Below, piece by piece: positions 3,495-10,111 of a stretch of 40,273 nucleotides of DNA (position 1 is the first letter of the stretch; each line of letters starts with the position of its first letter). The DNA is from Oscillatoriales cyanobacterium (GTDB lineage: Bacteria > Cyanobacteriota > Cyanobacteriia > CACIAM-69d). Location of the stretch: NCBI GenBank assembly GCA_004292515.1, contig RDXB01000055.1, forward strand, positions 1 to 40,273, read 5' to 3'. The translations under genes and the position numbers were made by a program. The notes beneath the pieces are model-generated. The model had not been told where the DNA came from. It saw nothing but the letters and a program-made list of their open reading frames with translations, and searched no databases.

Positions 3495-4736
3495 GTGCTG
3501 AATTTTGCCAGCTACTTTTTTGCGCCGGGGGGCTGGGGCACCCATGCGCGATCGTTCGCGGGGGCGCTGCATTGCTTAACCCCGATCGCCCTTGACCATT
3601 GGCATCCTCCGCAAGTATTGACCCACCCTGAAACCGGGGTTGCTGAGATTTTGGCGGCCAATTTCAGCCCTGACACAACTGCACCGACGATCGCGATCGT
3701 GCCCGGTGCCAAGATTCCGCCGATGGTGGGTCGCTACAAAATCGGCTTTTTTGTGTGGGAAACCAGCCATATTCCCCAGCATTTTTGTCAAGCACTCGAT
3801 CAGTTTGATGCCCTGTGGGTGCCGTCCCTGTGGCAGCGGCAGGTGGCGATTCAGTCGGGCTTGGCGGCCGATCGCATTCAGGTAGTGCCGGAAGGAGTTG
3901 ACCCGCTGTTATTTTGCCCCGCCGATCACCCAGTCCATCAGTCAGTTAATCGCCCAGTTAATCGCCCAGTCCATCAGTCAGTTAATCGCCCAGTTCATCA
4001 GTCAGTTCATCAGTCAGTTCATCAGTCAGTCCATCAGTCAGTTAATCGCCCAGTCCATCAGTCAGTTAATCGCCCAGTCGATCGCCCGACTGATCCCGAT
4101 CGCCCCTTTCACTTCGTCACTGTCGGCAAGTGGGAACGGCGCAAGGGCATTGATTTGGCGATCGCTGCCTTTGCCAGGGCCTTTGGGCCGCGAGATCGAG
4201 TTGAGCTGGTGCTGCACAGCCACAACGGCTATCAACCCGGATTTGAGCTACGGGAGGCGATCGCCCGCGCGGCCCCAGCTTTGGGAGCCGATCCCAGTCG
4301 AATTCGGCCCAGCTATCCCCAAGGGCGATCGGGATTGGTGCAACTGCTGCGTGGGGCCGATGCGTTTTTGTTGCCCACCCGGGGCGAGGGCTGGGGACTG
4401 CCCATTTTGGAAGCAATGGCCTGTGGGCTGCCCTGCATTGTCACGGACTGGAGCGGTTTGCGCGCCTATGCTCATCCCGGCAACAGCTATCTAATTCCGG
4501 TGAAAGCACTCGTGCCGGTGGATGATCCCGCGTTTTTTGACCCGGCGCTCAATTGGGGCTGCTGGGCAGAACCGGATCTAGAAGCAATCGTGGCGCTGAT
4601 GCGACAGGTCTATCGCGATCGCGCTGGGGCCCGTCAGATTGGGGCGATCGCCCGTGCAGAGGCGGCTGAGTTTTGGACATGGGAGCGGGCAGCCCACACC
4701 GCCATCGCCCACCTATCGCAACTTTGCCCCTGTTGA
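3495..4736 (+). CDS. Family 4 (GT-B) glycosyltransferase with tandem-repeat linker
   Basis: A retaining GT-B glycosyltransferase of the GT4 type, likely cytoplasmic and working on polysaccharide or glycolipid; donor and acceptor cannot be told. The N-terminal domain ends at VVPEGVDPLLF. The C-terminal nucleotide-sugar domain opens with FHFVTVGKWERRKG and carries the EX7E signature (E298 GWGLPIL E306) followed by EAMACGLPC. Length is 413 aa. The GTG at 3495 is used as start because nothing better lies in frame; the start is uncertain. Twelve four-residue units (HQSV or NRPV, residues 148-195) are inserted exactly in the linker between the two Rossmann domains. The gene stands alone: a MITE precedes it and about 290 bases of non-coding DNA follow. 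Confidence 0.85.
   Translation: MLNFASYFFAPGGWGTHARSFAGALHCLTPIALDHWHPPQVLTHPETGVAEILAANFSPDTTAPTIAIVPGAKIPPMVGRYKIGFFVWETSHIPQHFCQALDQFDALWVPSLWQRQVAIQSGLAADRIQVVPEGVDPLLFCPADHPVHQSVNRPVNRPVHQSVNRPVHQSVHQSVHQSVHQSVNRPVHQSVNRPVDRPTDPDRPFHFVTVGKWERRKGIDLAIAAFARAFGPRDRVELVLHSHNGYQPGFELREAIARAAPALGADPSRIRPSYPQGRSGLVQLLRGADAFLLPTRGEGWGLPILEAMACGLPCIVTDWSGLRAYAHPGNSYLIPVKALVPVDDPAFFDPALNWGCWAEPDLEAIVALMRQVYRDRAGARQIGAIARAEAAEFWTWERAAHTAIAHLSQLCPC
3936..4079 (+). repeat. In-frame 12-bp tandem repeat, 12 units, inside the GT4 gene
   Basis: Twelve contiguous 12-bp units encode HQSV (CATCAGTCAGTY) or NRPV (AATCGCCCAGTY), in the order H N N H N H H H H N H N, followed by a diverged DRPT. The unit is a multiple of three, so gain or loss of units changes only linker length. 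Near-identity between neighbouring units suggests recent expansion by slippage or unequal recombination. Confidence 0.95.
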
Positions 4737-5022: not shown

Positions 5023-6492
5023 GTGCCAGCCGCCGCCAGTCATTCCGCCAGTCACCCCGCCAGTCCTCTTGCCCGCCGCCCGATCGCCATTGACCTGTTT
5101 GCCGGAGCGGGGGGAATGTCCCTTGGGTTTGAAATGGCCGGATTTGATGTGGCCGTGGCGGTGGAAATTGATCCGATTCACTGTCTAACCCATCAATACA
5201 ATTTTCCGCAGGGGGCGGTGCTCTGTCGCAGTGCCGCTGAGGTGACTGGAGCCGAAATTCGTCAGCAGTTGGCGCAGGTTTTGCAGGGCGATCGCTCGCA
5301 AATCAACCCCGATCGCGCCGGTTTGATCAAATCCCCAGAATTAGCTCAATTACCGGGATTATTTAAATCACCAGAATCACCAGAATTACCAGAATTACCA
5401 GAAATTGACGTGATCTTTGGCGGCCCCCCTTGCCAAGGATTTTCGATGATGGGGAAGCGAGCCTTTGATGATCCGCGCAATGCCCTGATGTTTCACTTTG
5501 CGCGACTGGTGCAGGAGCTGCAACCCAAATATTTCGTGATTGAAAATGTACGGGGCATGACCCTCGGCCAGCATCGACAGTTTCTGGATGAATTAATTGA
5601 ATTATTTGCGACGATCGGCTACCAAATTGAAGCCAATTATCGGGTTTTAAACGCGGCCCATTTTGGAGTGCCCCAAGATCGCCAGCGACTGTTTTTGCTC
5701 GGTGCGCGATCGGGGTTGCCCCTGCCGGCCTATCCCGCGCCGATCACTCGTCGGCCGGCCCTTTCCAAAAGTGCCAAACGGGACAACATTTTAGGTGACT
5801 TGCCCCGTTGCCCCACGGTGGCCGAGGCGATCGCCGATTTGCCCAACGTGGATGCCTATGAGAGTTTGCGGGAGTCAGACTGGCTGGCCACCGAGCACCT
5901 AGGCGACCCGACCAGCGATTATGCCCAACAATTGCGAGGGCTGCTGCGGGATTCGGCAGACTTCAGCTACCCACGCTCGACCACCCGATCGCACCTGTCG
6001 GGTTGTTTGCGCACCGACCACGGAGCCACCTCGATCGCCCGTTTCCAAGCCACTCCTTGGGGCGAAGTCGATCGCATCAGCCGTTTTTTGAAGCTACACC
6101 CAGACGGCATCTGCAACACCCTGCGCGCCGGAACCCCCAGCAATCGCGGTGCATTTACCTCGCCGCGCCCGATTCATCCCCACCACGGCCGCTGCATCAC
6201 CGTGCGAGAAGCGGCGCGGCTCCATTCCTACCCCGATTGGTTTTGTTTCCACGGCACGAAATGGCACGGGATGCGCCAAATCGGCAACTCTGTGCCGCCT
6301 TTGCTGGCTCGGGCTGTGGCCGCCGAGGTGCGATCAGTCTTGGGCAACCCACCCACCCAACCGGAGCGGGCGATCGCCCCATTCGATCGCGCCTGGTTAA
6401 CCTACACCATGGGCCAAGCCGCCGACTTCTACACCGTCAGCCGCCACGCGATCGCCCCACGCCAACGCCAAACCGCCAGCCCATCATCCTAG
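5023..6492 (+). CDS. Orphan cytosine-5 DNA methyltransferase (Dcm family)
   Basis: It transfers a methyl group from S-adenosylmethionine to C5 of cytosine. Motifs are in canonical order: I, DLFAGAGGMSLG from residue 24; IV, GGPPCQGFS with catalytic Cys137; VI, ENV at 174; VIII, QDRQR at 218; then a target-recognition region and motif X, RQIGNSVPPLLARAV. Length is 489 aa. Translation begins at GTG 5023; the first 20 residues are low-complexity and dispensable-looking. An insertion before motif IV (residues 116-127) is made of SPE/LPE repeats. No restriction endonuclease or specificity subunit is adjacent, so it appears solitary. Specificity cannot be read from the sequence. Established: the orphan enzyme M.Ssp6803I of Synechocystis methylates CGATCG, the HIP1 core; this gene is a candidate homologue by context only. 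The neighbour downstream is a truncated tnpB. Confidence 0.92.
   Translation: MPAAASHSASHPASPLARRPIAIDLFAGAGGMSLGFEMAGFDVAVAVEIDPIHCLTHQYNFPQGAVLCRSAAEVTGAEIRQQLAQVLQGDRSQINPDRAGLIKSPELAQLPGLFKSPESPELPELPEIDVIFGGPPCQGFSMMGKRAFDDPRNALMFHFARLVQELQPKYFVIENVRGMTLGQHRQFLDELIELFATIGYQIEANYRVLNAAHFGVPQDRQRLFLLGARSGLPLPAYPAPITRRPALSKSAKRDNILGDLPRCPTVAEAIADLPNVDAYESLRESDWLATEHLGDPTSDYAQQLRGLLRDSADFSYPRSTTRSHLSGCLRTDHGATSIARFQATPWGEVDRISRFLKLHPDGICNTLRAGTPSNRGAFTSPRPIHPHHGRCITVREAARLHSYPDWFCFHGTKWHGMRQIGNSVPPLLARAVAAEVRSVLGNPPTQPERAIAPFDRAWLTYTMGQAADFYTVSRHAIAPRQRQTASPSS
5368..5403 (+). repeat. In-frame 9-bp tandem repeat in the methyltransferase
   Basis: Four 9-bp units (TCACCAGAA twice, then TTACCAGAA twice) encode SPE-SPE-LPE-LPE between motifs III and IV. 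The stretch is AT-richer than the rest of the gene, and the preceding residues look like older, diverged copies of the same unit. Confidence 0.85.
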
Positions 6493-6511
6493 GGGCGATC
6501 GTTCTTCAGGC

Positions 6512-7087
6512 CAGGCAATCGGCTTAGACGTTGGCCTCAGCGATTTCTATACGGATAGTTTTGGGCTGACGGTTGAAAATCCGCGCTTTCTCCGTCAAGG
6601 AGAAAGACGGCTAAAACAGGCTCAAAGGTGCGTCTCTAGACGTGTTAAGAGGTCTAACAATCGTGGCAAGGCTAGAGTGATTCTAGGGAAGCGCCATCTC
6701 AAGATAAGTAGGCAGCGTAAAGACCATGCCGTGAAATTGGCAAGGTGCGTGCTCACATCTAACGATGTTGTCGCCTATGAAGACTTGAGAATTAAAAATA
6801 TGGTCAAGAATCACTGTTTAGCCAAGTCGATTAACGACATATCTTGGTATCAGTTTCGGTCTTGGTTGGAATACTTGGGCAAGGTATTCGGAAAGATCAC
6901 CGTTGCCGTTCTACCCAATGGAACGAGCCAGGAATGCTCTAGCTGCGGGGCGATTATCAAAAAGTCCCTATCAACTCGCACTCATGCCTGTCGGTGTGGG
7001 TGCGTGTTAGACCGAGACCACAACGCCGCTAGAAACATCCTGAGTCGAGGATTGGCTACCGTGGGGCACACGGGAGCTTCATGCTAG
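6512..7087 (+). pseudogene. tnpB: 5'-truncated TnpB (IS200/IS605 family) remnant
   Basis: An open frame encodes the C-terminal half of a TnpB RNA-guided nuclease. It starts at about QAIGLDVGLSDF (RuvC-I Asp codon at 6527) and runs through VVAYEDLRIKNM (RuvC-II Glu codon at 6779). It then has a four-cysteine zinc finger (CSSCG ... CRCGC) and DRDHNAARNIL (RuvC-III, about 7010-7039). The C-terminus GHTGASC is typical. The N-terminal recognition and wedge region, usually about 190 residues, is missing. The frame runs without a natural start into the end of the methyltransferase gene; the first usable start is GTG at 6677, inside the nuclease domain. All three RuvC motifs survive, so decay is a 5' deletion rather than scattered mutation. 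No left end and no tnpA were seen. Confidence 0.88.
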
Positions 7088-7200
7088 ACATGAGCAACGC
7101 TTTAGGAGAATCGTCCTCTACCTTGGTTGGAGTAATCCTGTCAAAGCAAGTCGGCTCGTAGATTAAAGAATCCTCGTGCATTTACGCCGGGGAGTGTCAA
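7088..7200 (+). mobile_element. IS200/IS605 right end with putative omega-RNA scaffold
   Basis: The sequence after the tnpB stop ends in a short imperfect hairpin (CCTCGTGCATTTACGCCGG, then GGAGTGTCAA at 7200). This is the form of IS200/IS605 right ends in cyanobacteria. In characterised TnpB systems the omega-RNA spans the end of tnpB and the right end, and the guide is the flanking DNA just after it. Here that flank is a tandem repeat (7201 onwards). Whether any RNA is made cannot be seen. Confidence 0.65.
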
Positions 7201-7264
7201 TAGCGATCGAAGGGAATAGCGATCGAAGGGGATAGCGATCGAAGGGGATAGCGATCGAAGGGGA
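7201..7264 (+). repeat. 16-bp tandem repeat, four units
   Basis: Four head-to-tail copies of TAGCGATCGAAGGGGA (the first ends GGAA) begin at the first base after the IS right end. Each unit contains one CGATCG. There are no spacers, so this is not a CRISPR array. It lies 64 bases before the mutS start and could influence the mutS promoter region. Confidence 0.95.
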
Positions 7265-7327
7265 TAGAGAGTTTTTAACAACAGGCTGACTATTTAAAAC
7301 TTTCCATCCTCTCAAGAACCCGATAGG

Positions 7328-10111
7328 ATGAAAACTTCCCGGAAGCCTTCGATCGCTTCCCCATTACCACCCCGATCGCCCCTTGCCCCTTTGCTGGATC
7401 GCATGAGTGCCTCCTTGCCCCGCGATATTCCCAATGCTGACTATCGGTTGCTGGATTCTGAGAAGCTGACCCCGATGATGCAGCACTACGTTGCCGTCAA
7501 GGAGCAACATCCCCAAGCGCTGCTGCTCTATCGGGTGGGAGATTTTTTTGAGACGTTTTTTCAGGATGCCTGCACGATCGCGGAAGTGCTGGAACTGGTG
7601 CTAACTTCCAAGGAAGGCGGCAAGGAGGTCGGGCGCGTGCCCATGGCTGGCGTGCCTCACCATGCGATCGAGCGCTACGCGGCGCAACTGGTGCAAAAAG
7701 GCTATGCCGTCGCCCTTTGTGACCAAACCCAGGATGCGGCAGAGGCCCAGGGCTTGGTGCGGCGGGAGGTGACGCGGATTCTCACGCCGGGCACGGTGAT
7801 CGAAGAGGGAATGTTGGCGGCGCGCAAGAATAACTTTTTGGGGGCGATCGTCCTAGAGCGGCGGCATTGGGGCTTGGCCTACGCAGACATTTCCACGGGG
7901 GAATTTTGGGCCACCCAGGGCGAGGAGTCGGAAGCGCTGGTGCAGGAATTGTGGCGGCTGAGTCCGTCGGAGGTGTTGGTGCCGGTAAATGCGCCGGATT
8001 TGGTGGGGCTGTTGCGGCCGGGCGAGAGTCGATCGAGCCTGAACGGGCGCGGCTTTCCCGACTGGTTGCCCGCCCAGTTTTGCTATGCGTTGCGACCCCA
8101 ATCGCGGTTTGGGGCCACGGAGACGCGGCAACGGTTGTTGGAACGGTTCCGGTTGCGATCGCTGGAAGGGATCGGCTGCGATCGCCGACCCTTGGCGATG
8201 CGGGCGGCGGGCGGCCTGCTGGCTTACCTGGAAGAAACCCACCCCAGCAGCGAGGCCCAAACCCGCGAAATTCCGCTGCAACTGCTGAAAACCTATGAAA
8301 TTACTGATTATTTAATTCTTGATCACCAAACGCGCCGGAATTTGGAGATTGTCCAGACTGTGCGGGATGGGACGCTCACGGGGTCGCTACTCTGGGCGCT
8401 CGATCGCACTGTCACGGCCATGGGCGGGCGGGCCCTGCGGCGCTGGCTGTTGCAACCGCTGCTAGATCTCGATGGGATCACTGCGCGTCAGGGGGCGATC
8501 GGGGAACTGATCGATCGCCCCGACCTGCGCCAAGATTTGCAACGGCTGTTGCGGGAAATGTATGACCTAGAGCGGTTGGCCGGTCGGGCCGGGGCGGGGT
8601 CGGCCAATGCGCGGGATCTGGCGGCCCTGGCAGATTCCCTCGGGCGGTTGCCGGAGCTGGCCCGAGTGGTAGCCGACGGACAATCGCCCTATTTCCGGGT
8701 GTTGCAGCAAGTGCCGCCGGAACTGGAGCAACTGGGCGATCGGCTGCGGGGCGCATTGGTCGAAGAGCCGCCACTCTCGGTGACGGAAGGGGGCCTGATT
8801 CGCGACGGTGTCAACGGCCAGCTCAACACCATGCGCCAACAGTCGGCGGGCGATCGGGAATGGCTGGCAAATTTGGAGGCGATCGAGCGCCAACGCACGG
8901 GCATCAACACCCTGAAAGTGGGCTACAACAAAACCTTTGGCTATTTCATCGGCGTGTCGCGGGCCAAGGCCGACCTCGTACCGGACGACTACATCCGCAA
9001 GCAAACCCTGGTTAATGAGGAGCGCTACATCACGCCGGAACTGAAGGAGCGGGAGGCGCGGATTCTGTCGGCGCGGGATGACTTGAACCGGCTGGAATAC
9101 GAGATTTTTTGCGAGTTGCGATCGGCCACCGGTCTGCTGGCAGATCAAATCCGCAGGGTGGCCTTGGCGGTGGCGGCGATCGATGTGCTGGTTAATTTGG
9201 CAGAGTTGGCGATCGCCCGGGGCTATTGCCGGCCAACGGTCGATCGAGGGCGGATGATCGCGATCGACCAAGGCCGCCACCCCGTGGTGGAGCAATCCTT
9301 ACCCGAAGGCTTTTTTGTGCCCAACTCGACGCAGTTGGGCTATGAAATTGTCAACGGGGAGCTGGTTGATCCTCAAGCAGAGTTCACCGATCCCCAACCA
9401 GATCTCGTGGTGCTGACCGGACCCAATGCCAGTGGCAAAAGCTGTTATTTGCGGCAGGTGGGCTTGATTCAACTAATGGCCCAGGTGGGATCTTATGTAC
9501 CAGCCAAATCGGCCAGGCTGGGAATTTGCGATCGGATTTTCACCCGCGTGGGAGCCGTGGACGACCTAGCCACGGGTCAATCAACCTTCATGGTGGAGAT
9601 GAACGAAACGGCGAATATTCTCAACCATGCCACCGATCGCTCCCTGGTATTGCTCGATGAAATTGGTCGCGGAACGGCTACGTTTGATGGGTTGGCGATC
9701 GCTTGGTCAGTGGCAGAATACTTAGCCAGTGAGCTGCGATCGCGATCAATTTTTGCCACCCACTATCACGAACTGAACGAGCTAGCCACCCTGCTAGAAA
9801 ACGTCGCCAACTATCAAGTTGCCGTCAAAGAACTACCCGATCGAATTGTGTTTTTGCACCAAGTCCAACCGGGCGGGGCCGATCGCTCCTACGGCATTGA
9901 AGCGGCCCGCCTAGCAGGGTTGCCCCCCAGCACGATCGCCCGCGCCCGTGAAATCATGGCGCAAATTGAAAAGCACTCCAAAATCGCCGTTGGTCTCCGC
10001 CACTCCAACAGTTCAGGAACTAAACCCACAACCGCGGCCGGCGTGGTTACACCTGATCCATCCTTGTCCTCTTCAGCGGCCCAGCTTGATATTTTTAGTA
10101 AGAAAAATTAG
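7328..10111 (+). CDS. mutS: DNA mismatch repair protein MutS
   Basis: Recognises base mismatches and small loops and starts mismatch repair. The mismatch-binding motif is GDFFET (F73, E75, the family F-x-E). Connector, lever and clamp regions follow. The ABC-type ATPase has Walker A GPNASGKS (about 698-705), [14 protein letters not shown] (Walker B and signature) and FATHYHEL. Length is 927 aa, longer than E. coli MutS because of an N-terminal extension and a low-complexity C-terminal tail. ATG 7328 is taken as start; ATG 7403 is an alternative that still keeps the mismatch domain complete. Walker A has Ala-Ser where many bacterial MutS have Met-Gly. No mutL is in the window. Confidence 0.97.

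What the first reader, a model, noticed from the sequence alone, without database searches (positions are those of the whole stretch)
6512..7216. Headless TnpB that keeps its nuclease motifs and its omega-RNA end
Only the N-terminal half of TnpB is missing; the frame through all three RuvC motifs, zinc finger and right end is intact. That is unusual for a decaying transposon fragment, which normally collects stops. The natural guide would be the DNA just past the right end, which is the 16-bp tandem repeat, so any RNA made would match four neighbouring sites. Either the deletion is recent, or a shortened product (GTG 6677) or the RNA alone is retained.
Basis: partly seen in the sequence, partly recalled or inferred. 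Interest (0 to 1): 0.5.

Follow-up and report, generated by a model that had tools for sequence, protein, structure and literature searches.

The report
Broken TnpB transposon remnant
This is the leftover right-hand half of an ordinary bacterial jumping gene whose nuclease lost the parts needed to find DNA and hold its guide RNA, so it is most likely a fairly young, non-working fossil rather than a new kind of system.

Summary
The fragment is real: window 6503-7200 is the 3' half of an IS200/IS605-type tnpB (about residues 179-370 of 397) plus its right end. The three catalytic residues and four zinc-binding cysteines of ISDra2 TnpB align to it. An 86-sequence alignment puts the element's edge exactly at 7200, so any guide would start at 7201, in the 16-bp repeat. 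The frame is not intact to the right end: a one-base shortfall against relatives stops it at 7085-7087 and cuts off the C-terminal tail. The whole WED and REC part (TAM reading, omega-RNA gripping) is lost. No in-frame ATG/GTG/TTG precedes 6677, so a GTG-6677 product would also lack RuvC-I. No other copy of this TnpB and no head remnant was found in the own genome. The guide core occurs four times in the genome, all in this array, never beside the family's TTAY motif. dN/dS is ordinary for the family (0.092; median 0.087), fitting inherited constraint plus a recent truncation; 5% neutral divergence would give only about one stop. Verdict: ordinary decaying insertion-sequence remnant. The 'recent deletion' reading is supported; retained protein or RNA is not.

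The parts
6503..7084 (+). 3' part of tnpB without its head (family residues about 179-370 of 397, plus the first shifted codons); RuvC and zinc-finger (TNB) domains, no WED or REC
6493..6503 (.). left breakpoint zone: the host methyltransferase gene ends at 6492 and TnpB homology begins at 6503/6504; no left end (LE) present
7073..7097 (+). tail stretch one base short relative to relatives (frameshift), giving the stop at 7085-7087
7085..7200 (+). out-of-frame remnant of the TnpB C-terminal tail (original frame readable to 7160) and the right end (RE), i.e. the 3' part of what would be the omega-RNA scaffold; terminal hairpin weaker than most relatives
7201..7216 (+). would-be guide (flanking DNA, first unit of the 16-bp array); not part of the element
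7200..7267 (.). 16-bp tandem array, 4.2 copies; copies of the guide core start at 7201, 7217, 7233, 7249 and are not preceded by TTAY

Best explanation
A 5'-truncated, decaying copy of a cyanobacterial IS200/IS605-type element that carries tnpB. A full element of about 1.35 kb (size judged from the G001 copy) once sat here. A deletion or rearrangement removed its left end and the first ~178 of 397 codons and joined the rest just behind the methyltransferase gene (shown: structure and breakpoint; inferred: the event). The tail has since lost its frame. Without WED and REC the protein could not read a TAM or hold the omega RNA (established for ISDra2), without LE the copy cannot move, and no relative in the genome was found to supply the missing protein. 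It most likely does nothing; the open frame reflects inherited constraint and short time.
For: Sharp right edge and missing left half; frameshift in the tail, seen in 1 of the 71 sequences that could be tested of 86; three changes at columns conserved in at least 98% of the others, a number exceeded only by L088 of the 80 and equalled by L082, L084 and L081; terminal hairpin ranked 69 of 86 in stability; no sigma-70-type promoter-like site in 6480-7400, mean 0.7 in shuffles (other promoter types not covered); no same-family tnpB and no head remnant in the genome. Other remnants exist: a 103-110-bp solo right end on C16, 92% identical, a 283-bp 3' fragment in G002, and partial or broken TnpB genes of other families at 6 of 10 other places in the own genome, 3 of these 6 lying at contig starts. 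Fragmentation of IS605 elements is described in Halanaerobium (PMC7290912, passages).
Against: dN/dS is not raised (rank 33 of 80), so decay cannot be shown from the coding half itself. No other complete loss of the head was seen in 77 assessable of 79 relatives (these are the best 80 of 293 matches, ranked by the same half). Transcription was not testable.
Confidence: 0.93

Rival explanations
1. The right-end RNA is retained and works in trans with another TnpB of the genome, guided to the tandem array.
For: The right end is complete to its conserved last base; four exact 14-nt matches of the guide core lie in the array; four full-length TnpB genes of other families exist in the genome.
Against: Those TnpBs are only 38-42% identical to the fragment; the only other copy of this right end found in the genome is the C16 remnant; no array copy is preceded by TTAY; the terminal hairpin is weakened.
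Confidence: 0.03
2. A shortened protein from GTG 6677 (136 aa) is made and kept for a new role, such as RNA or DNA binding.
For: Open frame 6677-7084; dN/dS near 0.09.
Confidence: 0.02
3. The gap is an assembly artefact and the real locus holds a full element.
For: Draft genome of 111 contigs; reads are not available.
Against: The junction lies inside a 40-kb contig, the head was not found anywhere in the held genome, and an independent tail frameshift is present.
Confidence: 0.02

Closest known systems
Full tnpB elements of the same family in same-genus genomes G001:C3 (L129) and G002:C50 (L130); L037, Limnothrix sp. CACIAM 69d, shows the same alignment as the G002 copy
   Same: 81-82% protein identity over the shared part; right end with the same last bases
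   Different: Those keep left end, head and tail (397 aa); the G001 insertion has an empty counterpart in G000:C68
ISDra2 TnpB (PDB 8bf8, 8exa, 8h1j)
   Same: Catalytic and zinc residues align
   Different: The window lacks everything before about ISDra2 residue 187, i.e. WED (1-12, 117-176) and REC (13-116) (PMC10097598, passages)
Solo right end on own contig C16 (L002, L133)
   Same: 92% identical right end with the same terminal bases
   Different: Only about 103-110 bp, no coding part
TldR, nuclease-dead TnpB regulators (search listing of PMC13418256; details recalled)
   Same: Also TnpB derivatives that departed from the transposon form
   Different: As recalled, TldR keeps RNA and target binding and loses catalysis; here the catalytic residues remain and the binding half is gone

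Membership tests
IS200/IS605-type tnpB element | tnpB sequence similarity | tested here: met
IS200/IS605-type tnpB element | defined right end shared with family members | tested here: met
   edge at 7200, 86-row alignment
IS200/IS605-type tnpB element | left end preceded by target motif (TTAY in this family) | tested here: not met
   Homology starts at 6503/6504 inside tnpB; LE absent. Family motif: TTAT 29 and TTAC 15 of 51 hairpin-anchored elements among 82 examined, and the empty-site pair L129/L131
IS200/IS605-type tnpB element | tnpA (Y1 transposase) in the element, where autonomous | tested here: not met
   The ORF list leaves no room for one between the methyltransferase and mutS; the genome's only Y1_Tnp match is on C82
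Functional RNA-guided TnpB nuclease | three RuvC carboxylates and zinc finger | tested here: met
   (present in the open frame, but the first lies upstream of any usual start codon)
Functional RNA-guided TnpB nuclease | WED and REC domains | tested here: not met
   with PMC10097598
Functional RNA-guided TnpB nuclease | target with TAM next to the guide match | tested here: not met
   four array copies, 5' flanks without TTAY; no exact match of TTAY plus the first 12 guide bases in the genome (best has 1 mismatch; 15 sites at up to 2 mismatches, 12 for the reversed control pattern)
Functional omega RNA | transcribed and processed, bound by TnpB | not testable with these tools
   no RNA data; no Rfam match at gathering threshold in the window

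The most novel reading that the evidence does not exclude
A TnpB right end has been left behind as a stand-alone guide-RNA gene in front of mutS, with the 16-bp array as its own multi-copy target, and acts as a decoy or regulator with some other TnpB or with none.
Probability: 0.02. Interest if true: 0.5.

Novelty: already known. Interest (0 to 1): 0.07.

Why it matters
It matters little: it shows that an open, motif-bearing half of a TnpB is what a young truncated insertion sequence looks like, since only about one stop is expected per 5% neutral divergence over 570 nt. If the RNA were retained without its protein, that would be a new way for a genome to domesticate guide RNAs, but nothing here asks for that reading.

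Tried and rejected
Head remnant elsewhere in the genome, as the other half of a rearrangement: not found with the full protein or the full element DNA. In-trans TnpB of the same family: not found. Orthologous locus in sister genomes: methyltransferase and mutS lie about 44 kb apart in G001 and G002, so no empty site for this insertion could be read. dN/dS as a decay test: uninformative for the coding half (rows dropped before the count: L023, too short; L086, in-frame stop; 4 duplicates; 80 rows remained, window included). Bias of remnants towards keeping the right end: the three one-sided remnants C96, C16 and G002:C42 all keep it, but two short matches to the left-end region (G001:C11, G002:C24) and one fused left-right mini-element (G001:C18) also exist, so the numbers carry no weight. 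Codon positions were computed in a wrong frame and are not used; one search replaces them (the guide and flank lines do not depend on the frame). Literature: searches listed, as far as their titles and abstract starts show, no paper on retained right-end RNAs in cyanobacteria; this covers only the held open-access library and these terms.

Full report
What is there. The window is the whole contig C96 of a 3.98-Mb draft genome. TnpB relatives in named records are nearly all cyanobacterial, and the same-genus copy in G002 aligns like L037 of Limnothrix sp. CACIAM 69d. Window 6503-7200 is homologous to the 3' half of a 397-aa TnpB found whole in two same-genus genomes (G001:C3, G002:C50). The fragment matches residues 179-370 of the G001 protein at 81%. 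It hits OrfB_IS605, Cas12f1-like_TNB and guided_TnpB. It sits between an intact C5-methyltransferase gene (5023-6492; TIGR00675) and mutS (7328-10111).

Domains. Aligned with ISDra2 TnpB, D191, E278 and D361 fall on codons 6527, 6779 and 7016, and C331, C334, C351, C354 on codons 6935, 6944, 6989, 6995 (numbering counted by hand, codon positions). In ISDra2, WED is residues 1-12 and 117-176, REC 13-116, RuvC 185-326 and 360-375; WED and REC read the TAM, and WED with RuvC holds the omega RNA (PMC10097598, passages). The window therefore keeps nearly the whole nuclease lobe and none of the recognition lobe. The open frame runs from 6404 but has no ATG, GTG or TTG before 6677, so a GTG-6677 product would also miss RuvC-I.

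Right edge and guide. In an alignment of 86 sequences, conservation is 0.99 at 7200 and 0.33 at 7201. The G001 insertion, compared with its empty counterpart in G000:C68, gives the same right edge and a left flank TTAT. Across the family, 51 of 82 elements with enough upstream DNA could be anchored on a left-end hairpin, and 44 of these 51 have TTAT (29) or TTAC (15) shortly upstream; 31 of 82 could not be anchored. The anchor is crude and TTAY will also occur there by chance in some rows, so TTAY as motif rests on the exact site pair plus this majority. IS608 uses TTAC (PMC8612924, passages). The guide would start at 7201, in the 16-bp array. Its 14-base core occurs four times in the genome, all in the array. 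The 5' flanks are GTCAA (the element itself), GGGAA, GGGGA and GGGGA. None is TTAY. The window copy's own motif cannot be read because its left end is gone.

Signs of decay. The tail is one base short relative to relatives: 21 nt against 22 (64) or 19 (6) in the 71 sequences of 86 that matched the test, and the frame ends at 7085-7087; the family tail is still readable out of frame to 7160. Three of 71 near-invariant columns are changed; over 80 sequences L088 has four, L082, L084 and L081 also have three, and 40 have none. The terminal hairpin folds at -11.0 kcal/mol against a median of -14.2, rank 69 of 86, so it is weak but within the family's range.

Why the frame is open. Pairwise omega to the ten nearest relatives is 0.092 (median), rank 33 of 80, the median of all rows being 0.087. 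Synonymous distances are near saturation, so this is rough. It fits a branch spent mostly as a working TnpB with truncation late on it. Random substitutions make a stop in 3.8% of cases over the 570 nt, so 1.07 stops are expected at 5% neutral divergence and 2.15 at 10%. An open frame is no anomaly.

Base rates. The own genome also holds a right-end-only remnant on C16 at 92% identity, and ten other TnpB places of other families: four whole (C62, C103, C68, C85) and six partial or broken (C44, C106, C64, C30, C24, C19), three of these at contig starts, where cutting by the assembly explains part of it; C24 is an internal, open, headless piece like this one. In G002 a 283-bp 3' fragment lies on C42. 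Against this, among 77 assessable of 79 relatives from the genome collection, 72 have the head covered in one frame, three have it in two frames, two have lost only about its first 43 or 65 residues, and none lacks it wholly (at least two of the 72, L040 and L041, have a shortened open frame).

In trans. No second coding copy of this family was found in the own genome with protein, DNA or right end alone. The four full TnpBs are 38-42% identical to the fragment. One Y1 transposase match exists, on C82. No sigma-70-type promoter-like site was found in 6480-7400, with 0.7 expected by chance, which says little.

Conclusion. An ordinary 5'-truncated IS200/IS605-type remnant, probably young. Fragmented IS605 elements are documented elsewhere (PMC7290912, passages). 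Transcription and sister strains could not be tested here.

Noticed in passing
G001:C18:78943-79005 (L137, L139): A left end joined directly to a right end, about 58 bp, preceded by TTAT: a mini-element of the same family, apparently an internal deletion between the two similar end hairpins.
   Followed up: partly
G000:C16:18871-18973 (L002, L133): Solo right end, 92% identical to the window's, with a short direct duplication at its inner side.
   Followed up: partly
G000:C68:92383 against G001:C3 and G002:C50: Empty site in the window's genome for an insertion that both sister genomes share.
   Followed up: yes
window 5023-6492 and 7328-10111: The methyltransferase and mutS, about 0.8 kb apart here, are about 44 kb apart in both sister genomes, so the remnant lies in a rearranged stretch.
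   Followed up: partly
window 3925-4087: In-frame 12/24/36-bp tandem repeats in a glycosyltransferase-like gene, coding a VHQSVNRP-type run.
   Followed up: no
window 5329-5403: 9- and 36-bp repeats inside the methyltransferase gene.
   Followed up: no
G001:C11:31275-31321 and G002:C24:149363-149403: Short (41-47 bp) matches to the left-end hairpin in what look like the same surroundings in both genomes; old left-end remnants or chance hairpins.
   Followed up: no
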